Below, piece after piece: positions 28,597-53,866 of a stretch of 58,069 nt of DNA. The position numbers were made by a program, and so were the translations under genes. Location: the NCBI RefSeq assembly GCF_003611695.1, contig NZ_RAWE01000044.1:1-58069 (forward strand), written 5' to 3'. The stretch's first letter is position 1. Each line of letters opens with the position of its first letter. A model generated the notes under the pieces. The model searched no databases. It was given only the letters and a program-made list of their open reading frames with translations, and was not told the DNA's origin. The DNA is from Corallococcus carmarthensis. Lineage in GTDB: Bacteria; Myxococcota; Myxococcia; Myxococcales; Myxococcaceae.

Positions 28597-29067
28597 TCAG
28601 GGTTGAGCAGCCTGCACCTGTGACGCCACCGCCTTGAACAGCTCCGGATCCAGGTGCGCCCTGGACCCCAACAACAACCGCTCCTCCACCGCCCGCGGCG
28701 CGTCCTCGCGCAGCTGCGTGCGGCCGCCCGACACGAACTCCACGACGGCGCCGTGCACCGTGGCCCGGGCGCCATCCGCCCACGTCACCGTGAAGCCCCG
28801 GTAGCCCAGCCCCACGTCGGGCAGGGGCCGCGTTCCTTCCGGCAGCGCTTCCACCGCCTCGCGCAGGGCCCGTGACTCGTCGTCGGACAGCGCCCACGTG
28901 GGCGCCTCCCGGCCGCTGAAGACATCCACGCTCGCCCGTGCCGCTGACGCCATGGCCTTCTCCTCCGCGCCTGGCGCGTCCGCCGGAGCACTGCCCGTCG
29001 CGCAGGCCCAGGCTCCCAGAAGCCCCAGGCCCAACGCCAGCCACGCGCCTCGCAGTGACCGCTTCAT
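28597..29067 (-). CDS. FSGR-domain putative lipoprotein
   Basis: This 156-residue protein has a signal segment (LALGLGLLGAWAC) ending in a Cys, a weak lipobox. The mature protein is mostly one domain with SVDVFSGREAPTWALSDDE and GLGYRGFTVTW. The same two motifs, in the same order, open the neighbouring larger protein (LDIFSGRPNPRWALTERE and GLGYRGFIV), so the two genes share a domain. The start ATG overlaps the stop of that gene by four bases (ATGA), indicating translational coupling. Function unknown. Confidence 0.8.
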   Translation of the reverse strand: MKRSLRGAWLALGLGLLGAWACATGSAPADAPGAEEKAMASAARASVDVFSGREAPTWALSDDESRALREAVEALPEGTRPLPDVGLGYRGFTVTWADGARATVHGAVVEFVSGGRTQLREDAPRAVEERLLLGSRAHLDPELFKAVASQVQAAQP

Positions 29068-29885
29068 GACACCGTCACGTTGTAGCCGCGGTAGTAACCG
29101 CAGAACACCGTGTAGCCGCCGCGGTCGGCCGTCTCCGGGTTCAGGATGAGCTGGTTTGAGTTGTCGTAGTTGCGCGCCGCCGTCTGGCCCGGCTTGTGGC
29201 ACCAGTGGCTGTTCGCGCAGTAGCGATACCAGTGGTAGTCGTAGTTCGGCCAGATGACCAGACAGACATTGTAATTGGCGTCCGCCCGGCACGCCGTCAG
29301 CCATCCGTCCCGCACCGCCCCGCCGCCCACCGCCGCGCAGTCGATGCTGGCGTAGATGGCCCCCGACGCGCGCCCCGGCTGCGCGAAGGTGTTGGTGCGC
29401 AGGTTGCTCGCGAAGTTGTAGCAGTTGTTGTAGCGGAGGTTCGCGGCCCCGTTCCAGAAGCTGAAGTCCGTGTCGCTGGTGAGCGCCGCCGGGCTGCAGA
29501 GGGTCATCACGCCCTGCACGTCCAGGGACTGGAGGATGACGGACTCAGCCTCCGCCAGCACCGGACCCGGGTCGCGCAAATCCAACCGCGCGCCCTCCGC
29601 CGAGTGCAGCAGGAAGCGCGAGCTCTCCGCCGCCCCCGGCTGGAACGCGCCGCCCAGGCGCACCACCGGCGGCAATCCCAGCCGCTTCCAGTCATCCGCC
29701 ATGCCGGTGTCCTCGGCGCGCACGATGAAACCCCGGTAGCCCAGGCCACCCGTGTCGGCGTCCAGCGGCAGCAGCAGCGACGGGTCCGCGCGGATGCGCT
29801 CCGTCAGCTGCCGGGCCTCGCGCTCCGTCAACGCCCACCGCGGATTGGGACGCCCCGAGAAGATATCCAGCTCGACAGTCACCAT
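29064..29885 (-). CDS. FSGR-domain protein with cysteine-peptidase-like C-terminus
   Basis: This 273-residue protein has residues 1-60 as the FSGR domain (ELDIFSGRPNPRWALTE, GLGYRGFIV). Residues about 160-273 carry NNCYNFASNLRTNTFAQPG, then a run with two cysteines, YDYHWYRYCANSHWCHKPG and a C-terminal TVFCGYYRGYNV. The order Cys (NCYNFA) ... His (YHWYR) ... Asn/Asp (YDNSNQ) resembles papain-like/NlpC-type peptidases, and the HWYR...HKPG block is shared with a widespread family of uncharacterised bacterial proteins. Activity is inference. No signal peptide is seen. GAGGTG precedes the ATG at 29885. It is the first gene of a three-gene cassette. Confidence 0.82.
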   Translation of the reverse strand: MVTVELDIFSGRPNPRWALTEREARQLTERIRADPSLLLPLDADTGGLGYRGFIVRAEDTGMADDWKRLGLPPVVRLGGAFQPGAAESSRFLLHSAEGARLDLRDPGPVLAEAESVILQSLDVQGVMTLCSPAALTSDTDFSFWNGAANLRYNNCYNFASNLRTNTFAQPGRASGAIYASIDCAAVGGGAVRDGWLTACRADANYNVCLVIWPNYDYHWYRYCANSHWCHKPGQTAARNYDNSNQLILNPETADRGGYTVFCGYYRGYNVTVS

Positions 29886-45515: not shown

Positions 45516-46520
45516 TCAGGCCCCGGCCTGGCGCGCCACGCGCTCGATGGCCTCCACCGCCGCGTGGACGCCGTTGACCCAGGCAGCGGGGCGCGCGCGA
45601 GTCCCCTCCTGGAGCAGGAGCGCGACCTTCGCCTCCAGCTGCGCCGCGTCCCCCACCCGCTCCGCCTCCCTCAGTCGCAGGGCCTGCCGGTCGTAGAGGC
45701 GGGGCCGAGCCCAGGCCACCAGCGGCGTCCCGGTGGCCCGGGCCTCCTGCACGGTGTTGTAGCCGCCCGCTCCCACCAGCACGTCCACGCCCCGCATCAC
45801 CGCGAGCGCCGGCCAGACCGCCTGGCCCGATGCATGGGCCGTGGGAACGAGCCACCCCACCGCCGCCCGCTCCCCCAGCGACACGCGCAGCCGGTCCGCC
45901 GTCTCCCCGGCTTCCGCCACCTCCTCCGGGCGGCCGCACCCCATCACCGCCACCACGGGCCGCGCGTCGCCGTCCTCCATGCCCAGCTGGCGCCGGGCCT
46001 CCTCGCGGGACACCAGCGCGTCCGCGTCCAGCAGCAGCCACGGCGCCGTGCGCACCGCGCGCGGGTGGTGCGCGAAGGGCGCGTCCTCCCCGGGCACGAC
46101 GAGCAGGTCGAACGCGTCCACGGCGTGGGCCACGTCGAAGCGCTCCACGTAGACGGGGTTCAGGTCGCGGTGCACCAGCACGCGCGGCGCGCGCACCGTG
46201 GGCAGCAGCGCCACCAGCTCACCGGCGAGTCCCCGGGGAAAGGTGTCCACCACCAGCACGTCCGGCGTGGACCCGGCGAGCCACGCGCCCACCGCCGCCA
46301 CGGTGGCGGCCTTGTCCAGCCGCGCGTCCACGCGGTGCACGGTGGCGCCGGGGCCCAGCCACGACTCCAGGGGCAGGCCGGGGGCGAACGGGCTGTTGGT
46401 GAGGACCTCCACCGCATGGCCCCGGGCCACGGCCGCGCGGGCCAGGGCCGCGGCGCGCGTCAGGTGCCCCAGGCCTCCGCCCAGAGCGTAGAGGCGCCAG
46501 TGCCGGCGTCGCGCGGCCAC
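45516..46520 (-). CDS. MurG-like family glycosyltransferase
   Basis: This 334-residue protein of the GT-B fold has the N-terminal glycine loop YALGGGLGHLTRAAALARA, VDTFPRGLAGEL, and VLVHRDLNPVYVERF. The sugar-nucleotide site is VDVLVGAGGYNTVQEARATGTPLVAW followed by YDRQALRLREAE (landmarks in the C-terminal half). This is the MurG/GT28-like arrangement. Acceptor unknown. It is the last gene of a seven-gene minus-strand run, separated from the zinc-protein gene by only 2 bp, so co-translation is likely. Confidence 0.88.
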   Translation of the reverse strand: MAARRRHWRLYALGGGLGHLTRAAALARAAVARGHAVEVLTNSPFAPGLPLESWLGPGATVHRVDARLDKAATVAAVGAWLAGSTPDVLVVDTFPRGLAGELVALLPTVRAPRVLVHRDLNPVYVERFDVAHAVDAFDLLVVPGEDAPFAHHPRAVRTAPWLLLDADALVSREEARRQLGMEDGDARPVVAVMGCGRPEEVAEAGETADRLRVSLGERAAVGWLVPTAHASGQAVWPALAVMRGVDVLVGAGGYNTVQEARATGTPLVAWARPRLYDRQALRLREAERVGDAAQLEAKVALLLQEGTRARPAAWVNGVHAAVEAIERVARQAGA

Positions 46521-46522
46521 GC

Positions 46523-46930
46523 TCAGCTACCGCCCAGGTCCTCCTCGAAGGAGGCGTCATCCTCGCGCCGCACGCTCTCGCCGTCGGCCTCGGTGAAGTC
46601 GTTGGTGTCGTGGCCCGAGGACGAAGACGCCGACGACCCGGAGCCGCGCCACGCGTCGCGGCCGTAGTAGCCGTAGTCCTCGTAGTAGTAGCTGGGGTCG
46701 TCCTCGTCGGTGCTGGTGTCGGATCCGTCGCGGTTCTCGTCGCCGTTGTCGGCGGCGCGCGCGCACGTCACGCAGACCGTCTCCGCGCCATCGAGCACGC
46801 GCATGTGCAGCGCGCAGATGGGCTTCTGGCAGCGCGCGCACTGCGTGGACGCCCCGCGCTCACAGGGGTGGGAGAAGAGGAAGCCGGAGGTCTCCAGGCA
46901 CTGCTCGGCGGAAGCGAAGGAAGGGGACAT
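46523..46930 (-). CDS. B-box-like zinc-binding protein with acidic low-complexity tail
   Basis: This 135-residue protein has an N-terminal half with CERGASTQCARCQKPICALH followed by CVTC, a B-box-like set of Cys/His ligands. The C-terminal half is low complexity: Asp/Glu runs, a Tyr cluster (PSYYYEDYGYYG) and a Ser/Gly stretch, likely disordered. The same Cys/His pattern is seen in the Yip1-like protein at 35 kb. There is no signal peptide. It sits 12 bp after the lipoprotein gene and 2 bp before the glycosyltransferase gene. Confidence 0.78.
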   Translation of the reverse strand: MSPSFASAEQCLETSGFLFSHPCERGASTQCARCQKPICALHMRVLDGAETVCVTCARAADNGDENRDGSDTSTDEDDPSYYYEDYGYYGRDAWRGSGSSASSSSGHDTNDFTEADGESVRREDDASFEEDLGGS

Positions 46931-46942
46931 GGCTTGGAAGGC

Positions 46943-47608
46943 TCAGGGCGACGCGGGGGTCTGGAGGCGGAAGAGCAGGGCCATGCGCAGGGGCAGGTCC
47001 AGCGAGTCGAAGCCCAGGCACGCGGCGGCCTCTGGCGACACCGGTTGCTTGGTGGCGAGCACCGTCTTGCCGGACGGGTCGCGCAGGGACAGCTTGCCGT
47101 CGCGCACCTTCACGTGGAGCGCCTCCGCGCCGGACGCGCCCTTCACGGACGCACCGCCGCCGTCGTGAACCACGGTGTAGAGCACCGCGCCCTGGGCGTC
47201 CGTGAGCTTCCACCCGGTGCCCTCGCGCGCGAGCGTATAGCGCACGGCCGAGCGCGCCGCGTCCTTCACCTGGAACGCGTCCGGGCCGCCCGTGACGTAG
47301 GCCAGCACCGCGTCGTCCGGACCGGACACCTTGAGCTCGCCGCCCTTCCACTTGTAGCGCGCGACCTCCTGGTCCTCGCCGTCCACGAGCTTGGCGCCGT
47401 CGTCCTTGGGCTTGAGCGAGAAGCGCTCGCGGTCGTCGCCATCCTTGAACTTGAGCTTGGCGCCCGCCTCCTTCGGCTCGGCGGCGGAGGCGGCGGCGGT
47501 GGCGGACATCGCCTGGGTGGGCGGCGCGCTGGAGGCGGGAGCGCCCTGCGAACAGGCCGACGCCCCGAGCATGCCGAGGCCCACGAGGAACAGGACACGA
47601 AGCTTCAC
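46943..47608 (-). CDS. Lipoprotein, unknown function, coupled to the paralogue array
   Basis: This 221-residue protein starts KLRVLFLVGLGMLGASAC, a signal peptide with a lipobox (ASAC). After an Ala/Ser-rich linker it has a repetitive beta region with a recurring K-D-G pattern (KLKFKDGDDRERFSLK, KLVDGEDQEVARYKWKGGEL, and VKVRDGKLSLRDPSGK), as in beta-solenoid or Tricorn-like proteins. The GTG start overlaps the stop of the upstream membrane paralogue by four bases (GTGA), and GAGGT lies eight bases upstream. The coupling strongly ties it to the paralogue array. Confidence 0.82.
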   Translation of the reverse strand: MKLRVLFLVGLGMLGASACSQGAPASSAPPTQAMSATAAASAAEPKEAGAKLKFKDGDDRERFSLKPKDDGAKLVDGEDQEVARYKWKGGELKVSGPDDAVLAYVTGGPDAFQVKDAARSAVRYTLAREGTGWKLTDAQGAVLYTVVHDGGGASVKGASGAEALHVKVRDGKLSLRDPSGKTVLATKQPVSPEAAACLGFDSLDLPLRMALLFRLQTPASP

Positions 47609-48627
47609 GACGTGGACCTCACGTTCCCGGGCTGGGCCTGGGAGCTGGAGTGGTTGAGCACCTGGCAGAGGCTCAAGAGCATCATCGTCGCGGTGCGCGA
47701 CGCATCCGGCTTCGGGGCGTCCGCCTTCCGGGCCTTGTCTGGCAGCACCTGGGACGGGTCCGGGGCCTGGGCCACCCAGTCCTCGTCCAGCAGGACGCGC
47801 AGCTCCACCCGGTCCTCGGCCACGCGCACCCGCTTCAGCGTGGCGCCATGGGGCAGCCGCACGGCGTCCCGCGCGCGCTTCTCCAGGGCCGCGAGCCCCG
47901 GGTGGCGCTCCGGCTTCACGCGCAGCGCCACCTGGATGAGGCTGACCCCGCGTCGCTTGCTCCGGGTTTTCACCTTGCGCGGCAGGTCCTTCGTGCGCTG
48001 GAACATTCGCGCCACATCCACCACGGACAGATGCAGCCGCGTGCCGTCCGCGAGCCGGCCCTGCAACGACAGCCACGGGTTGGCGAAGTCCTCCTCGCGG
48101 ATCCCCGTGCCGTAACTCCCCAGGTGGACGCGCTTGCTGGGATCCAGGGAGGACGAGAGGTCCAGCGTCACGTCCACGGGCGTGTCATCCAGCAGGTCCA
48201 ACTGGAAGCGCTGGAGCAGCGTGGCCAGCAGCAGGCGGCGCTGCTGCTCGTACGGATCCACGAACCGCTCCTCCAGCAATGATGATGACACCTCCATCGG
48301 GGGACGCCCCCCCACCCATGACGCGATGAGCGCCAGGACGCCGCCGAGCCCCATGAAAGAACCGAAGAAGAGCAGCAGGGCGAAAACCCCTCCCTTCTGG
48401 TCCAGGGGCACGAGCAAAAGGACCCCGATGCACACCCCGGCGGCGAGGAGCAGTCCCTTGCCCAGACGCCCCATGCCGTCCGTCTGACGACTGGCGTGCG
48501 TGGACAGCGATTCCGGGGCGCGCTGGGACCGCGGGTCCAGGGCATGCAGGTCCTCCAGCACCTCCGCCACGGTCGCGCGCCGCTGGTAGACCTGGGTCTT
48601 CTGGAAGGCTGCGAGGTCGAGCGGCAC
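47605..48627 (-). CDS. Two-helix membrane paralogue 1 of a four-gene array
   Basis: This 340-residue protein of a family I do not recognise has four copies in tandem here. Its parts are an amphipathic N-terminus (FQKTQVYQRRATVAEVLEDL), a hairpin of two membrane helices (LLLAAGVCIGVLLLVPL and FALLLFFGSFMGLGGVLALI), then LLATLLQRFQLDLLDD, NPWLSLQGRLADGTRLHLSVVD, and a basic stretch leading to SLIQVALRVKPERHPGLAAL. The C-terminal helix is DASRTATMMLLSLCQVL. The bulk, about 220 residues, would face the cytoplasm. It is the most divergent of the middle three paralogues and is translationally coupled to the following lipoprotein. Confidence 0.85.
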   Translation of the reverse strand: MPLDLAAFQKTQVYQRRATVAEVLEDLHALDPRSQRAPESLSTHASRQTDGMGRLGKGLLLAAGVCIGVLLLVPLDQKGGVFALLLFFGSFMGLGGVLALIASWVGGRPPMEVSSSLLEERFVDPYEQQRRLLLATLLQRFQLDLLDDTPVDVTLDLSSSLDPSKRVHLGSYGTGIREEDFANPWLSLQGRLADGTRLHLSVVDVARMFQRTKDLPRKVKTRSKRRGVSLIQVALRVKPERHPGLAALEKRARDAVRLPHGATLKRVRVAEDRVELRVLLDEDWVAQAPDPSQVLPDKARKADAPKPDASRTATMMLLSLCQVLNHSSSQAQPGNVRSTS

Positions 48628-48691
48628 GGGAGGGAAACCTTGTTCGGCGGGAGCTGGCCGCGACCGAGCGTAGGAGGCGCCTCCGGACAGG

Positions 48692-49660
48692 TCAAACCGG
48701 CTGTTGGCGAGCCGGTGAGGGGCTCCGCCGGCGCGTGGCGCCCAGCACCTGGTAGAGGCTCAGGAGCATCATCGTCGCGGCGCGCGCCGCGTCCTGGGAC
48801 GCGGGAGGCGTCAGCCCCTTCGGCGCCGTGCCGGCCGGCGGAGCGGGCTTCGTCGTCACGACACTCCACTCCTGATCCAGCACGGCGCGCAGCGACAGGC
48901 GGTCCTCCGCCACGTCCAGCCGCGACAGCACGACGCCCGCGGGGAGCCGCGTGGCCTGCTTCGCGTCCGCGCGCAGGCCGGACAGTCCGGGGAAGCGCTC
49001 CGGCTTCACGCGCAGCGCCACCTGGAGCAGCGTCTTGCCCTTGCGCTTGGTCTTGAGCTTCGTCTTGCCGCTGCTGCTGCGGCCGTAGCGCCTGCGCTTC
49101 TGGAGATGATCCACGACGGACAGGTGCAGGTGCGTGCCGTCGGCGAAGCGGCCGTGCAGGGACAGCCACGCGTCGGTGAAGTTCTCGCAGTCCCACCGGC
49201 CCCGCTTGAGCTTGCCCACGCACTTGCGCGCGTCATCGCGCGGGGACAGGTCCAGCTTCACGTCCACGGGCGCGTTCACGTCCAGGTCCACCTGGAAGCG
49301 CTGGAGCAGCGTGGCCACCAGCCCGTAGCGCCGGTTGTCCAGGTCCGTGCGGCCCGCGCGCGCCCGGATGATGAAGAGCACGATGCCCGTCGCGAAGCTC
49401 GCCACGCCCACGAGCAGCGGCATTCCCGCCATCGCGTCCTGCTGCTCGAACGACAGCTGCCCCACCGCGACGGACAGCAGGGCACAGCCGGCGATGCTGA
49501 AGACCATGCAGGCCCAGGCGGCGATCCACAGCGTGCGCCGCTTCCGCTCCGCCTTCGCGTCCAGGTCCGCCAGCGCCTTCAGGTCCGCCAGCACTTCCGG
49601 CACCGGCGCGCGGGTTTCGTAGACGTACGTCTTCTGGAATTCGGAGGGGTCGAGCGCCAC
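48692..49660 (-). CDS. Two-helix membrane paralogue 2 of a four-gene array
   Basis: This 322-residue paralogue starts at a GTG (49660) aligned with its relatives (FQKTYVYETRAPVPEVLADL). Two helices follow (IAAWACMVFSIAGCALLSV and LLVGVASFATGIVLFII), then the NRRYGLVATLLQRFQVDL segment, DAWLSLHGRFADGTHLHL, and KTKLKTKRKGKTLLQVALRV with KPERFPGL. The C-terminal helix is DAARAATMMLLSLYQVLG. The site before the GTG is weak. A downstream 40-bp stretch is identical to paralogue 3 (48741-48780 against 49750-49789). Function unknown. Confidence 0.85.
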   Translation of the reverse strand: MALDPSEFQKTYVYETRAPVPEVLADLKALADLDAKAERKRRTLWIAAWACMVFSIAGCALLSVAVGQLSFEQQDAMAGMPLLVGVASFATGIVLFIIRARAGRTDLDNRRYGLVATLLQRFQVDLDVNAPVDVKLDLSPRDDARKCVGKLKRGRWDCENFTDAWLSLHGRFADGTHLHLSVVDHLQKRRRYGRSSSGKTKLKTKRKGKTLLQVALRVKPERFPGLSGLRADAKQATRLPAGVVLSRLDVAEDRLSLRAVLDQEWSVVTTKPAPPAGTAPKGLTPPASQDAARAATMMLLSLYQVLGATRRRSPSPARQQPV

Positions 49661-49789
49661 GGAGGGAGCGTAGAAGTCCCCTCCAGGCAGGTCAAACCGA
49701 CTCGCGGCGTCCGCGCGCCGCCTGCTGCCTCGCGCGCCTGCGGGCATACCCCAGCACCTGGTAGAGGCTCAGGAGCATCATCGTCGCGG
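48741..49789 (-). repeat. Exact 40-bp direct repeat near the ends of paralogues 2 and 3
   Basis: Bases 48741-48780 and 49750-49789 are identical over 40 positions. They encode the conserved C-terminal helix (TMMLLSLYQVLG). A third copy with two mismatches lies near the end of paralogue 1 (about 47658-47692). The identity exceeds what protein conservation needs and points to recent duplication or gene conversion. The feature span covers both exact copies. Confidence 0.8.
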
Positions 49790-50687
49790 TGCGGGACGCG
49801 TCGTCCTTCTCCAGCGCCTGCCGCCAGAAGGCCGGCGCCTCCGGATCGTCCAGGGCCTTCTCCGGCCGAGCCACCCATTCATCGGACAACCGGGCGCGCA
49901 GCGACAGCCGGTCCACGGCGACGCGCGTCCGCTCCAGTTCGACGCGCCGGGGCAGGCGCGTGGCGGCGGTGGCGCGGGCCTTGAGCTTCTCCAGGCCTGG
50001 GTAGCGCTCCGGCTTCACGCGCACGGACACCTCCAGCCGGGCGAAGCCCTTGCGCTTGGTCTTGGTGCGCGTCTTGCCGCTGGCGCTCGTCTTGGAGCGC
50101 TCGCGCTTCTGGAGCCGCTCCACCATGTGGATCCGCAGGAAGGTGCCGTCCGCCAGCCGGCCCTCCAGCGTGAACCACGGGTCGACGAAGAAGTCCGTGT
50201 TCCACCAGCCCACCATGTCCTGCTTGACGCGCTTCTCGCGCACGTCGGGCGGGCGCAGGTCCAGCTTGAGGCGCACCGTCGCGTCCGGGGCCAGGTCCAC
50301 CTGGAGCCGCTGGAGCAGCACCTGGGCCAGGCCATAGCGCCGGTTGTCCAGGTCGCGCACCTTGAGCACGACCCGCCAGAAGAACAGGCAGAGGCCCACG
50401 GCGAGCAGCGTCCCACCCACCACGCCCACGGTCTTCAGGAGCTGAGCGCCCGCCTCGGAGAACCGCTCGTCGGCGTTCACGGCGCCCGCCCACACGCCGT
50501 AGGCCAGCAGGGCCATCGCCCCGCCGGGAATCACGGTGAGCCACCCGGACCACGCCAGCGCGCGCCGCTGCGCCTCCGCGCGGGCATCCAGTCCGGCCAG
50601 CACCTCCAGGTCCGCCAGCAGCTCCGGCACCGGCGCGCGGGACTGGTAGAGGAAGACCTGGTGGAAGCGGCGGATGTTGACCGACAC
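49692..50687 (-). CDS. Two-helix membrane paralogue 3 of a four-gene array
   Basis: This 331-residue paralogue has an N-terminus (FHQVFLYQSRAPVPELLADL) and helices (LTVIPGGAMALLAYGVWAG and VGGTLLAVGLCLFFWRVVL) like those of paralogue 2. It then has NRRYGLAQVLLQRLQVDL, VDPWFTLEGRLADGTFLRIH, KTRTKTKRKGFARLEVSVRV, KPERYPGLEKL and the C-terminal DASRTATMMLLSLYQVLG. It is the closest relative of paralogue 2 in the array. Gaps are 31 bp to paralogue 2 and 70 bp to paralogue 4. Confidence 0.85.
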   Translation of the reverse strand: MSVNIRRFHQVFLYQSRAPVPELLADLEVLAGLDARAEAQRRALAWSGWLTVIPGGAMALLAYGVWAGAVNADERFSEAGAQLLKTVGVVGGTLLAVGLCLFFWRVVLKVRDLDNRRYGLAQVLLQRLQVDLAPDATVRLKLDLRPPDVREKRVKQDMVGWWNTDFFVDPWFTLEGRLADGTFLRIHMVERLQKRERSKTSASGKTRTKTKRKGFARLEVSVRVKPERYPGLEKLKARATAATRLPRRVELERTRVAVDRLSLRARLSDEWVARPEKALDDPEAPAFWRQALEKDDASRTATMMLLSLYQVLGYARRRARQQAARGRRESV

Positions 50688-50757
50688 GGCGGTGGACTCC
50701 CTGAGACGGCCCGTCGGGCGGACCGCGCGCGAGCGTAGGGGCCCGCGCGAACGACGG

Positions 50758-51789
50758 TCAAACAGCCTTGCGGCCGCGCCGCTTCCGGGTGCTCCGCTCC
50801 GGCTTCGGGAGAGGCGCGGGGACGGCCTTGGGCGCTGGCGGAGGCTGCGGTGGCTGCGGAAACCGGGCGACGTGGAGCATCTGGTAGAGGCTCAGCAGCA
50901 GGCCCGTGAGCATGCGGGAGGCATCGAGCGGGTCCGCCCGCGCCCGCCAGAAGGCCGCCTCGGCGACGGCGAGCTTCCGTTCCGGACGGGAGGAGATGCT
51001 CCGGGGAATGCGCGCGCACCAGGGCTGCCGTACCTGGATCTGGAGCCGGAGCTGGTCCGCGGACACCCGCAGCCGGCGGAAGGTCACGCTGTCGGGCAGG
51101 CGCACGCACCTGCGGGCCTCGGCCTCCGTCAAGGTCGCGAGCTCCGGGTGCCGGCGGGCCTTCACCCGCAGGCGCACGTCCACGTGCAGCACGTCCCGGT
51201 ACTTGAGCCGGATGCGCGTCGCGTTCGGGCGCGACAGCTTCACGCGGGACTGGCACCGGCGCTTCTCCACGATGCGCAGCCGCAGGTACGCGCCGTCCGC
51301 CAACCGCGTCTCCAACGTGAGCCACGGGTCGACCAGGGTCCAGGCCGTGCTCTTGCCCATTCCCGCCGGACTGAACCGGGAGCCGGGGCCCCGGTCGATG
51401 GGCCGCGAGCGCAGCTTCAGGGTCACCCCCCCGTCCGCCGCGAGGTCGCGCTGGAGGCGCCGCAGGAGCACGGCCACCAGCTCCGGTCGGCTGGCGCGCT
51501 CGTTGATTTCCACGAGGGGGTCCTCCCGCGAGAAGCGCAGGGAGAACCGGAACATGGCCAGCCCGCATCCCATCCAGAACGCCATGAACCCGGCGATCTG
51601 GGGCACGGGCTCCGGATAGACGAGGCACAGCACCCCGCACATCAAGATGAGCCCCGAGACCCCGAGCGTGACCCAGCGCCCCGCGTCCCAGCGCACCGCC
51701 CGAAGCGCGCGCCGCGGGAACGTGTCCAGGAGGCGCAGCACCTGGTCCACCGGAGCCTGATGGAGCTCGTGCAGGGGCATGCGGGCCAT
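50758..51789 (-). CDS. Two-helix membrane paralogue 4 of a four-gene array (most divergent)
   Basis: This 343-residue paralogue has a shorter N-terminus (HELHQAPVDQVLRLLDTF). Helices are VTLGVSGLILMCGVLCLVY and IAGFMAFWMGCGLAMFRFS. It then has ELVAVLLRRLQRDLAAD, VDPWLTLETRLADGAYLRLR, LHVDVRLRVKARRHPEL, and LDASRMLTGLLLSLYQMLHV, followed by an Arg/Lys/Pro-rich tail. It is first in the run and divergent from the pirin gene across 106 bp, so the operon promoter probably lies in that gap. An ATG at 51780 is an alternative start. The conserved C-terminal helix shows it belongs to the same family. Confidence 0.82.
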   Translation of the reverse strand: MARMPLHELHQAPVDQVLRLLDTFPRRALRAVRWDAGRWVTLGVSGLILMCGVLCLVYPEPVPQIAGFMAFWMGCGLAMFRFSLRFSREDPLVEINERASRPELVAVLLRRLQRDLAADGGVTLKLRSRPIDRGPGSRFSPAGMGKSTAWTLVDPWLTLETRLADGAYLRLRIVEKRRCQSRVKLSRPNATRIRLKYRDVLHVDVRLRVKARRHPELATLTEAEARRCVRLPDSVTFRRLRVSADQLRLQIQVRQPWCARIPRSISSRPERKLAVAEAAFWRARADPLDASRMLTGLLLSLYQMLHVARFPQPPQPPPAPKAVPAPLPKPERSTRKRRGRKAV

Positions 51790-51895: not shown

Positions 51896-53047
51896 GTGGA
51901 CGAAGTGAGCCGGAGAGCGGCGTTGAAGCTCATCGCGGTGGCGGGAGTCACCACCGCCGCGGGGTGCTCACGCGGTTCGGGAAAGGCAGAGGAGTCGAAG
52001 ATGAGTCAGCAGCAGGCGCAGCAACCGGAAGCCATTGTCCGCGTGGATCCGCTCGGGCCATCCCCCACCCCGTGGCGGACGCCGGATCCGTTCCTCTTCT
52101 GCGTGCACCACGACGACCGCTACCCCCAGGGCAACGAACAGCTGGGGCCGAAGGCGTCGCTCGCGGGCCGTGACATCGGCCAGGACTTCGCGGGGCGGGA
52201 CGGCTGGAACATGTACCACGGCACCGTCGTGCCGGGCTTCCCGCAGCACCCGCACCGGGGCTTCGAGACGGTGACCATCGTGCGCAACGGGCTCCTGGAC
52301 CACTCGGACTCGCTGGGCGCGGCGGCGCGCTTTGGCGGGGGCGACGTGCAGTGGCTCACCGCGGGCGGTGGCATCAACCACTCGGAGATGTTCCCGCTGC
52401 TCAAGCAGGACCAGGGCAACCACATCGAGCTGTTTCAAATCTGGCTCAACCTGCCGCGCGCCAACAAGATGGTGACGCCGCACTTCTCCATGTTGTGGAA
52501 CCACGTCATCCCGCGCCACGTGGCGAAGGACGACGCGGGCCGCGCCACGGACATCACCGTGGTGGCGGGCAACCTGCGCGACGTGAAGGCGCCGCCCCCG
52601 CCGCCCAAGTCCTGGGCCGCGAACCCGGACGCGGACGTGGCCATCTGGACGTTGAAGATGGAGCCGGGCGCGCGCTGGACGCTGCCGGCGGCGGTGCGTG
52701 GCACGAACCGGATGCTCTACTTCTTCCTGGGCTCGCGCCTGAGCGTGGGTGGCAAGGCCGTGCAGGCGCGCAACGCCATCGAGCTGCGCGCGGACGTGGA
52801 CGTGGTGCTGGAGAACGGCCCGGAGACGGCGGAGCTGCTGCTGCTCCAGGGCAAGCCCATTGGCGAGCCGGTCGTGCAGTACGGCCCGTTCGTGATGAAT
52901 TCGCGGCAGGAGATCCAGCAGGCCTTCGCGGACTACCAGCGCACGGGCTTCGGCGGCTGGCCCTGGCCCAGCCACGACCCGGTGCACGCGAAGGAGGAAG
53001 GCCGCTTCGCGCGGCACGCGGATGGCCACGTGGAGCGGCCGGCCTGA
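51896..53047 (+). CDS. Pirin-family protein with a Tat/lipobox leader
   Basis: This 383-residue protein from the GTG at 51896 has the pirin metal site HPHRGFETVTIV, LTAGGGINHSEMFPL with its His and Glu, a bicupin layout and a C-terminal domain ending around FGGWPWPSHD. The N-terminus SRRAALKLIAVAGVTTAAGC has a twin-arginine motif and a lipobox, so the product would be exported. A strong ribosome-binding site (GAGGAG) followed by an ATG at 52001 offers a second start that drops this leader and gives a cytoplasmic pirin of 348 residues. Pirins are usually cytoplasmic quercetinase-like or regulatory proteins. Both starts are credible. Confidence 0.9.
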   Translation: MDEVSRRAALKLIAVAGVTTAAGCSRGSGKAEESKMSQQQAQQPEAIVRVDPLGPSPTPWRTPDPFLFCVHHDDRYPQGNEQLGPKASLAGRDIGQDFAGRDGWNMYHGTVVPGFPQHPHRGFETVTIVRNGLLDHSDSLGAAARFGGGDVQWLTAGGGINHSEMFPLLKQDQGNHIELFQIWLNLPRANKMVTPHFSMLWNHVIPRHVAKDDAGRATDITVVAGNLRDVKAPPPPPKSWAANPDADVAIWTLKMEPGARWTLPAAVRGTNRMLYFFLGSRLSVGGKAVQARNAIELRADVDVVLENGPETAELLLLQGKPIGEPVVQYGPFVMNSRQEIQQAFADYQRTGFGGWPWPSHDPVHAKEEGRFARHADGHVERPA

Positions 53048-53866
53048 TCAGGGCTTCTTCGGTTTGGAGCCTTCCCACTCGAAGCTCACGGAGGGCGCCT
53101 TGACGGTCTTGGCGTCCTTCATGAGGAAGCCCTCCTGGCGCGTGCTCGCGCGCTCCAGGGCGGGCTTCAGGGATGCGGGGATGGGCAGCAGCACGCCCAC
53201 CACGAACATGTTCCCGCGGCAGGATTCGTTGTCGTAGCCGAACGCGATGCGCACGGCGACCTTGTCGCCTTCGACGTGGTGGAACGCGACGGAGCGCTTC
53301 ACGTTGTCGAGGCCGTACTGGAACCCGACGCAGTCCTCGCCGGGCTCCAGGCTCTCCAGCATGGCCCCCACGGTCTTCGCGTTCTTGAAGGCCTCCGCGT
53401 CGCCGGCGTGCTTCTTCACGAAGCCGTCCGCCTTGAGGGCCTTGAGGACCTCCTTCTCCGGGAACACGTCCAGCAGGGAGAAGGCGCCCTTGTCCTTCGT
53501 CACATCCCAGGTGACGTAGGAGGAGTGCGCGTACGGGTGCGCGCCGCCGGTATAGCCGGAGCTGGATTCCTCGTAGCTCACCCAGGGGCCCACGACCGAC
53601 AGCACCTTGAAGGACTGATAGGCCTCCCAGTCGGAGGGGTCCCGGGTGTCCTCCGGGTCGGGCTCGAAGTTCTCGAGGAAGTCCTTCTTGCGTGACTGGA
53701 GGCCGAAGACCTCCTTGCCGCCGCGCAGGGCGCGCACGTCCTTGTCGGACATCTCGAACGTCACGTCGGATCCGGTCACCTTCCACGTGAGCGGCTGGGA
53801 CTTGGGTGCGGGCGCGGCCGAGAGCAGCGCCGCCACCACCACGGAACTCATGAGCATGCGCGCCAT
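53048..53866 (-). CDS. Exported DUF3298/DUF4163-like protein
   Basis: This 272-residue protein has an N-terminal signal segment (MLMSSVVVAALLSAAPAP). The mature part carries SGYTGGAHPYAHSSYVTWD and KGAFSLLDVFPEKEVLKAL, the GGAHP...DLF layout of DUF3298/DUF4163 domains found in PdaC-like cell-wall proteins, then CVGFQYGLDNVKRSVAFHHV and a terminal beta strand. No catalytic residue is obvious, so a binding role is likely. The ATG at 53866 was chosen as the start of the signal. Its stop codon immediately abuts the pirin stop codon in the convergent orientation. Confidence 0.85.
   Translation of the reverse strand: MARMLMSSVVVAALLSAAPAPKSQPLTWKVTGSDVTFEMSDKDVRALRGGKEVFGLQSRKKDFLENFEPDPEDTRDPSDWEAYQSFKVLSVVGPWVSYEESSSGYTGGAHPYAHSSYVTWDVTKDKGAFSLLDVFPEKEVLKALKADGFVKKHAGDAEAFKNAKTVGAMLESLEPGEDCVGFQYGLDNVKRSVAFHHVEGDKVAVRIAFGYDNESCRGNMFVVGVLLPIPASLKPALERASTRQEGFLMKDAKTVKAPSVSFEWEGSKPKKP

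What the first reader, a model, noticed from the sequence alone, without database searches (positions are those of the whole stretch)
47605..51789. Four tandem paralogues of an unrecognised two-helix membrane family
Directly seen: four adjacent minus-strand genes share one layout, namely a short N-terminal helix, two membrane helices, a segment like NRRYGLxxxLLQRxQVDL, a VDPWxxLxGRLADGTxLxL block, a basic RVKPERxPGL block and a C-terminal DASRxxTMMLLSLYQVL helix. I know no family with this set. The C-terminal helix is the most conserved part, down to 40 identical bases in two copies, so it may be an interaction surface. A hetero-oligomeric membrane complex is inference.
Basis: partly seen in the sequence, partly recalled or inferred. 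Interest (0 to 1): 0.72.

Follow-up and report, generated by a model that had tools for sequence, protein, structure and literature searches.

The report
Tandem membrane proteins with chaperone-like domain
Four neighbouring genes of a predatory soil bacterium are related copies of an undescribed membrane protein whose inner part is predicted to fold like proteins that hold on to other proteins; the gene nearly always sits beside the same small zinc-finger and sugar-transferase-like genes, so it is probably an anchor or adaptor of an unstudied envelope system.

Summary
Four adjacent minus-strand genes (47605-51789) are full-length paralogues (38-50% identity to copy B) without a Pfam or NCBIfam family. 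They are real genes: ML omega 0.22-0.41, below 1 but above all five neighbour genes that could be fitted. Of 195 Myxococcota genomes 51 hold the family: arrays of 2-5 copies in Corallococcus (16 of 16 genomes), mostly one copy elsewhere. New here: (1) the part after the membrane helices is predicted with confidence and best resembles class I type III secretion chaperones and YbjN proteins (SycN Z 9.0, 116 of 121 residues), though no sequence link was found; (2) charge bias places it in the cytoplasm; (3) in 33 of 34 main loci the same zinc-finger and glycosyltransferase-like genes follow (30 with a lipoprotein between), and the zinc-finger gene was found only in genomes with the family; (4) copies B, C and D each follow the same promoter-like box, found nowhere else in the 10.8-Mb assembly. 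The conserved C-terminal helix ends the predicted fold, so a core role is as likely as an interaction surface. Best guess: membrane-tethered adaptor; client unproven.

The parts
50758..51789 (-). Copy A (340 aa from ATG at 51780; 343 aa from 51789); most diverged array copy, groups with the dispersed paralogues
49692..50687 (-). Copy B (331 aa, GTG start); modelled: helices 20-72 and 78-109 (membrane hairpin), domain 115-271, last helix 297-328
48692..49660 (-). Copy C (322 aa, GTG start)
47605..48627 (-). Copy D (340 aa, GTG start); its stop overlaps the lipoprotein start by 4 bases
50732..50761 (-). Promoter-like box TTGACC-N18-TACGCT before copy B (44 bases to the start), overlapping the stop codon of copy A
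49667..49695 (-). Promoter-like box TTGACC-N17-TACGCT before copy C (only 6 bases to the called start), overlapping the stop codon of copy B
48667..48695 (-). Promoter-like box TTGACC-N17-TACGCT before copy D (39 bases to the start), overlapping the stop codon of copy C
46943..47608 (-). Co-conserved lipoprotein-like gene (Cys after signal stretch; weak, sub-threshold likeness to LOR in 4 of 13 members)
46523..46930 (-). Co-conserved small Cys/His-rich (B-box-like, weak) protein with an acidic, strongly conserved tail NDFTEADGES..
45516..46520 (-). Co-conserved glycosyltransferase-like gene ending the cluster
   Evidence: (Pfam Glyco_transf_4 E 0.073, below cut-off)

Best explanation
The four genes encode inner-membrane adaptors. 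Each protein has a membrane hairpin of two helices and a cytoplasmic domain with a type III secretion chaperone/YbjN-like fold. Proteins of this fold are thought to act without enzymatic activity, by dimerising and binding stretches of other proteins. The likeliest client is made by the same gene cluster: the small zinc-finger protein, whose acidic conserved tail could lie against the strongly basic hairpin of the adaptor's sheet, so that it (and perhaps the co-encoded glycosyltransferase-like protein) is held at the inner face of the membrane, with the lipoprotein acting on the other side. In Corallococcus the gene multiplied into an array whose B, C and D units mostly kept a promoter-like box; the copies have since diverged, in B, C and D most of all in the N-terminal/membrane part, perhaps to make mixed dimers or different doses. 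Shown by computation: paralogy, purifying selection, charge bias, co-occurrence, shared box. Supported by a predicted model: the fold. Inferred only: topology from the charge rule, dimerisation, client, promoter activity, link to envelope glycan.
For: Fold: AlphaFold2 of B with 22 sequences pLDDT 86.9, pTM 0.76; domain alone 87.8, 0.81. VIA-align for the domain alone: SycN 1xkp_B Z 9.0, 3.5 A, 116 of 121 residues; CapZ beta Z 8.5; DR_1245 Z 7.0; Spa15 Z 6.8; YbjN Z 6.8; AmyR Z 6.3; ExsC Z 6.0. The first 13 entries listed are 7 T3S-chaperone/YbjN entries, 5 CapZ-type entries and 8q8o; other folds start at Z 5.8. Topology: Lys+Arg after TM2 exceed those of the loop in 69 of 73 members, before TM1 in 65 of 73. 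Linkage: zinc-finger gene in 49 of 195 genomes, all 49 within the 51 that hold the family by the four-protein profile; lipoprotein in 45 of 195, all within them; in genus g3 the same 3 of 6 genomes have family and zinc finger. In 33 of 34 main loci the zinc-finger and glycosyltransferase-like genes follow; the exception ends at a contig edge. Family/lipoprotein 4-base overlap in 23 of 30. Charge: hairpin 192-216 is +6 to +13 in 73 of 73; the zinc-finger tail is -4 to -9 in 15 of 15 and more conserved (mean pairwise identity 0.78, 14 rows) than the finger region (0.44). Purifying selection: omega 0.22-0.41 for the four copies. Paper: AmyR abstract and sections on structure, T3SS and conservation read (PMC5398634): fold shared without sequence similarity, action by protein-protein contacts, client surfaces variable.
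Against: No Foldseek hit at E <= 0.001 in either search; the tool notes best Z of 7-8 as usual for models without a clear match, so 9.0 is only moderately above. VIA looked only at the 1000 chains Foldseek ranks highest, and for the whole-length model its top rows are helix-pair matches (AhlB pore 8.5, GacS kinase 8.1). The predicted domain has more strands before the middle helix than AmyR, and a shorter middle helix. No sequence relation to YbjN: PF10722 finds nothing in the own genome, hhalign probability 0.1% against a poor two-member YbjN profile. Charge bias is not clear in each window copy: B is tied before TM1 and D after TM2. Three genomes of g3 and G182 keep family and zinc finger without the lipoprotein, G146 has a distant family member without the zinc finger, and the six dispersed paralogues examined have none of the partners beside them. 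Nothing tests binding. The zinc-finger protein is acidic outside its tail as well in most rows, so the tail is not singled out by charge. The glycosyltransferase-like label is below Pfam's cut-off.
Confidence: 0.42

Rival explanations
1. Membrane-bound regulator: the domain works like YbjN/AmyR in controlling an envelope polysaccharide pathway, by sequestering a regulator (perhaps the zinc-finger protein), and the membrane hairpin senses envelope state.
For: Glycosyltransferase genes flank the locus in several genera; AmyR is named amylovoran repressor in the title of entry 5fr7, and PMC5398634 describes regulatory effects of AmyR (section read); the N-terminal/membrane part is the least constrained in B, C and D (omega 0.41-0.60 against 0.14-0.29 for the domain).
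Against: No known DNA-binding or signalling domain was recognised in the cluster genes scanned; in copy A the domain is not more constrained than the membrane part (0.44 against 0.35).
Confidence: 0.25
2. Hetero-oligomeric channel or transport complex built from the paralogues.
For: Membrane hairpins; adjacent genes; weak MscS-like alignments in the whole-length comparison.
Against: The MscS rows have rmsd above 18 A over the span, so they are no real match; the 27 genomes of g19 listed do with a single copy; copy number varies 2-5 between species of one genus.
Confidence: 0.12
3. Birth-and-death expansion with little function of its own: copies arise by tandem duplication, are partly redundant, and decay.
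For: Array size 2-5 among the 15 Corallococcus loci not cut by a contig end; C-terminal relics between copies at G081:C99:15506-15631 and G089:C114:11522-11647, a relic at G088:C6:39998-40150 and broken copies in G085; omega of A, D and dispersed copies (0.31-0.41) is 2 to 3 times that of the single gene in six g19 genomes (0.145).
Against: The four window copies are open and omega stays below 1; a B-type and a C/D-type copy are kept in both halves of the genus seen in the tree.
Confidence: 0.17

Closest known systems
YbjN family (PF10722; AmyR, DR_1245)
   Same: Predicted fold of the soluble domain (Z 6.3-7.0); strongest conservation in presumed core elements
   Different: No sequence-profile match; extra strands; membrane hairpin and long basic hairpin; cluster with lipoprotein, zinc-finger and glycosyltransferase-like genes
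Class I type III secretion chaperones (SycN, Spa15, ExsC)
   Same: Best structural match of the domain (SycN Z 9.0, Spa15 6.8, ExsC 6.0)
   Different: Membrane-anchored; no type III secretion gene recognised among the ten neighbour and partner proteins scanned; basic, not a small acidic soluble protein (the latter description recalled)
CapZ beta / dynactin capping subunit
   Same: Similar alpha/beta arrangement with long last helix (Z 8.0-8.5 for the best two)
   Different: Eukaryotic actin capper; a shared arrangement only, no functional parallel proposed

Membership tests
YbjN family (PF10722) | Match to the PF10722 profile | tested here: not met
   No match in G000; not among the families listed for the four proteins or the 29 members
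YbjN family (PF10722) | alpha-beta3-alpha-beta2-alpha fold | tested here: inconclusive
   Predicted model only; YbjN Z 6.8, DR_1245 7.0, AmyR 6.3, below the level the tool calls distinctive; extra strands
YbjN family (PF10722) | Soluble single-domain protein of about 150 residues | tested here: not met
   Window copies have 322-340 residues; two windows of mean hydropathy above 1.2 in 67 of 73 members
[quoted passage not shown]
   SycN Z 9.0 over 116 of 121 residues, model confident, but no Foldseek hit at E <= 0.001
[quoted passage not shown]
   Adjacent genes are a lipoprotein-like, a zinc-finger, a glycosyltransferase-like and a pirin gene; none recognised as type III, but two are of unknown function and the genome was not searched for type III systems
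[quoted passage not shown]
   No complex prediction available

The most novel reading that the evidence does not exclude
A new class of inner-membrane adaptor in which a secretion-chaperone fold has been tied to the membrane by a helix hairpin and holds a zinc-finger/glycosyltransferase complex of the same cluster; in Corallococcus it has become a combinatorial set, the B, C and D units each carrying a promoter-like box that takes in the stop codon of the copy before it.
Probability: 0.22. Interest if true: 0.68.

Novelty: new variant of a known kind. Interest (0 to 1): 0.45.

Why it matters
It adds an undescribed protein family and a three- to four-gene cluster that is kept together across genera of myxobacteria and whose members, apart from weak matches, have no family name. 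If the fold holds, it shows a client-binding chaperone fold used as a membrane tether. The tandem units with portable promoter-like boxes give a clean case for studying how bacterial paralogue arrays grow, diverge and decay, and the single-copy Myxococcus version makes the function directly testable by deletion.

Tried and rejected
Named families: Pfam and NCBIfam gave nothing above a cut-off for the four proteins; PADLOC gave nothing at E 0.1 for them and three cluster proteins. DUF6232 came up weakly in 8 of 29 members (best E 0.0051); in the 10 single-copy and distant members looked at again, its 3 matches cover only the membrane part, so it was dropped. PDB by sequence: nothing credible for the family, the zinc finger or the lipoprotein. 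Plasmid tblastn with copy B: no match. Other phyla: one genome-contig scan (84,980 species) with two strict peptide patterns found 7 loci, all from Corallococcus or Myxococcus records except one labelled Comamonas; distant relatives in other phyla would be missed by it.

Gene conversion as the cause of the identical bases: tested, not supported. Positive selection: counting estimates (NG86) gave whole-gene dN/dS of 0.85-1.30 for A and D, which I put down to extreme codon bias because the codon-model fit with F3X4 frequencies gave 0.41 and 0.40; I do not claim positive selection. A first codon-model run printed no omega because of my parsing (looked up). In one search the zinc-finger fit for Corallococcus did not optimise (omega and kappa both 1.000) and was dropped; its fit for six g19 rows was 0.119. 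The zinc-finger NG86 values were 0.33-0.72, among the higher ones of the neighbours. In one search L046 has two B-type copies and I used one.

The two most distant members (L081, L082) were left out of the tree, codon, charge and hydropathy counts, leaving 73 of 75. The strong scores of G017, G146 and G182 with profile A2 are circular, as their sequences were in it; the independent values are those of the four-protein profile: 6e-47, 1.4e-7, 2.9e-14. The tree is midpoint-rooted, for drawing only, and several rows have long branches. The YbjN comparison profile A7 was poor: by my mistake one of its two sequences was entered twice. The promoter-like pattern was written after seeing the spacers, so its count is post hoc; the backward control gave 0. 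The sigma70 scan of the tool found no promoter at its threshold. My gene caller is a simple codon-usage script; starts are approximate, and in four loci (L044, L048, L074, L076) the lipoprotein start it called lies 20-107 bases after the family gene. Literature: searches on YbjN with T3S chaperones (5 papers), Corallococcus with tandem paralogues (5), YbjN with transmembrane/domain architecture (122 papers, 10 listed), chaperone-like fold with membrane anchoring (1), LOR lipoproteins (4), Corallococcus pan-genome (358, 10 listed): no listed title or abstract start names this family. Of these I read the AmyR abstract and three sections and the DR1245 abstract; the others I saw only as listings.
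Full report
WHAT IS THERE. Four minus-strand genes, A 50758-51780 (or 51789), B 49692-50687, C 48692-49660 and D 47605-48627, encode proteins of 340, 331, 322 and 340 residues. They align from end to end; identity to B is 38% (A), 50% (C) and 38% (D), and B alone finds the other three in the genome with E-values from 5e-75 to 4e-30. The window is contig C388 of a 10.8-Mb, 530-contig assembly. Genomes in one contig also carry arrays (G076 four copies, G086 three, G087 two), so the arrays are not assembly errors. A fifth, dispersed paralogue lies on C66.

NO NAMED FAMILY. None of the four proteins matches a Pfam or NCBIfam model above its cut-off. The best Pfam E-value among 29 family members is 0.0051, and the three DUF6232 rows I looked at cover only the membrane part.

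DISTRIBUTION. With a profile of the four window proteins, 51 of 195 Myxococcota genomes have a match; with the wider profile A2 it is 52 of 195, one of them weak. Genus g1 (Corallococcus) has it in 16 of 16 genomes, with 2-6 matches each. Genus g19 holds Myxococcus vastator (G133 has its match at the same contig position as L043); all 27 g19 genomes listed (handles G112-G138) have one copy. Genomes without a match are listed only in part, but neighbouring handles G111 and G139 belong to other genera. Genus g5 has it in 2 of 2 listed, g3 in 3 of 6. Outside the family it was seen in G017 (E 6e-47) and G182 (E 2.9e-14), and a distant member in G146, of the same family (E 1.4e-7), all with the four-protein profile.

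ARRAY HISTORY. In a tree of 73 members (midpoint root, several long branches) the B copies form one well-supported clade (100/100). The C-like and D-like copies fall together (92/94), D with one further copy as its own clade (100/100), and A groups with the dispersed paralogues and one more array copy (97/86). The single-copy genes of other genera group together (96/81). Arrays hold 2-5 copies in the 15 Corallococcus loci that are not cut by a contig end (in L061 three copies are seen before the edge). Relics that keep only the C-terminal part lie between copies in G081 and G089, and there are broken copies in G085 and a relic in G088. This looks like birth and death of copies. The identical bases at the C-terminal helix are not recent gene conversion.

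SELECTION. ML codon models (GY+F3X4, IQ-TREE) give omega 0.223 (B, 9 species), 0.228 (C, 9), 0.397 (D, 7), 0.413 (A, 4), 0.314 (dispersed, 6) and 0.145 (six single-copy g19 genes). Neighbours in Corallococcus give 0.089 (lipoprotein), 0.133 (glycosyltransferase-like), 0.041 (pirin), 0.038 (distal glycosyltransferase) and 0.128 (gene 53048-53866); the zinc-finger fit failed. So all four copies are kept by selection, yet change faster than the five fitted neighbours. In B, C and D the N-terminal/membrane part is freer (0.41-0.60) than the domain (0.14-0.29); in A it is the other way round (0.35 against 0.44). Simple counting had suggested ratios of 0.85-1.30 for A and D; I take that for a codon-bias effect.

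TOPOLOGY. Median hydropathy of the two membrane windows is 2.07 and 2.25. Lys and Arg after the second helix outnumber those of the loop in 69 of 73 members, and before the first helix in 65 of 73; among the window copies B is tied before the first helix and D after the second. By the positive-inside rule both ends and the large domain are cytoplasmic (inference from an established rule).

FOLD. AlphaFold2 with 22 sequences gave pLDDT 86.9 and pTM 0.76 for copy B, and 87.8 and 0.81 for residues from 111 on alone. The elements are helix 115-131, five strands, a short helix 236-242, two strands, and the last helix 297-328. Foldseek found nothing at E <= 0.001. VIA-align on the domain alone, limited to Foldseek's 1000 best chains, ranks SycN (1xkp_B; named SycN in PMC5398634) first: Z 9.0, 3.5 A, 116 of 121 residues. 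It then lists CapZ beta 8.5, dynactin capping subunit 8.0, DR_1245 7.0, Spa15 6.8, YbjN 6.8, AmyR 6.3, 8q8o 6.3 and ExsC 6.0, among others; other folds begin at 5.8. With the whole-length model the same group appears on residues 114-317 (SycN 8.0, DR_1245 7.4, YbjN 6.2, AmyR 5.9), behind and between helix-pair matches such as AhlB (8.5). The consistency of the group, more than any one Z, is the argument. The AmyR paper (abstract and sections 13-15 read) reports that YbjN proteins share the class I chaperone fold without sequence similarity, that their conserved residues are in the core and dimer interface, and that client-facing surfaces vary. In this light the conserved C-terminal helix is probably core.

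PARTNERS. Downstream of the last copy stand a lipoprotein-like gene, a small Cys/His-rich gene and a glycosyltransferase-like gene. In 34 main loci examined (16 Corallococcus, 12 of the 27 g19, 2 g5, 3 g3, G017), 33 have the last two downstream; the other is cut by a contig end. The lipoprotein is missing in the three g3 loci. Family and lipoprotein genes overlap by 4 bases in 23 of 30 loci, the window included. The zinc-finger profile finds 49 of 195 genomes, all of which have the family; of the 51 family genomes it misses G079 (array at a contig end) and G146 (distant member). The lipoprotein profile finds 45 of 195, all with the family. In 17 of the 18 non-Corallococcus loci a divergent glycosyltransferase gene stands next upstream; in 16 of 16 Corallococcus loci a pirin gene takes that place. 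The six dispersed paralogues have none of these partners. The small protein resembles B-box fingers weakly (best E 2e-4, 6 of 15 members). Its tail is more conserved (0.78) than its finger region (0.44) and acidic in 15 of 15, while residues 192-216 of the family are basic in 73 of 73. This is the ground for naming it as the likely client; it is inference.

PROMOTER-LIKE BOX. TTGAC-N-N16-19-TA-N3-T occurs within 150 bases upstream of 47 of 75 family genes and of 0 of 545 other called genes of the same loci. Though 16-19 were allowed, the gap is 17 in 27 and 18 in 20 of the 47, and 45 of the 75 genes have the exact hexamers TTGACC and TACGCT. The exact form occurs three times in the whole 10.8-Mb assembly, before B, C and D; the backward control pattern does not occur. 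In the window the TGA inside TTGACC is the stop codon of the preceding copy (sequence). The 28 misses are the 6 A-like array copies, the 6 dispersed copies, 7 of the 12 g19 genes, the two most distant members, and 7 B-, C- or D-type copies, 5 of which are first in their array. In 41 of 47 the box ends 22 or more bases before the called start, but in 6, copy C of the window among them, only 6-8 bases, which would leave almost no leader (L044 shows the usual 44-base leader for C). It looks like a sigma-70-type promoter, which the tool's scan missed at its threshold; that it is a promoter is inference, and the pattern was chosen after seeing the sequences.

VERDICT. The most likely reading is a membrane-tethered, chaperone-fold adaptor of a conserved small cluster, with an expanded and diverging set in Corallococcus. 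The fold is moderately supported, the genetic linkage strongly, the client and the pathway not tested.

Noticed in passing
window 28597-28929 and 29064-29885: Two nearby minus-strand genes share DxFSGRxxPxWAL and GLGYRGF motifs: perhaps another small paralogue pair, not identified.
   Followed up: no
   Followed up: partly
window 52001-53047: A pirin-family gene stands next upstream of the array in 16 of 16 Corallococcus loci, where 17 of 18 loci of other genera have a divergent glycosyltransferase gene.
   Followed up: partly
G081:C99:15506-15631, G089:C114:11522-11647, G088:C6:39998-40150, G085:C308 and C82: Relics and broken copies of the family, some keeping only the C-terminal part.
   Followed up: partly
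window 49660-49667; also L044, L045, L046, L048, L080: In six family genes the promoter-like box ends only 6-8 bases before the called start codon, against 22 or more in the other 41: possibly nearly leaderless messages after loss of the leader.
   Followed up: partly
L006:4477-5469 and L055-L059: Dispersed Corallococcus paralogues without the partner genes, with a less basic hairpin (mean +6.2 against +9.8 in arrays) and a shared GCTAGCATG-like upstream stretch in several of them.
   Followed up: no
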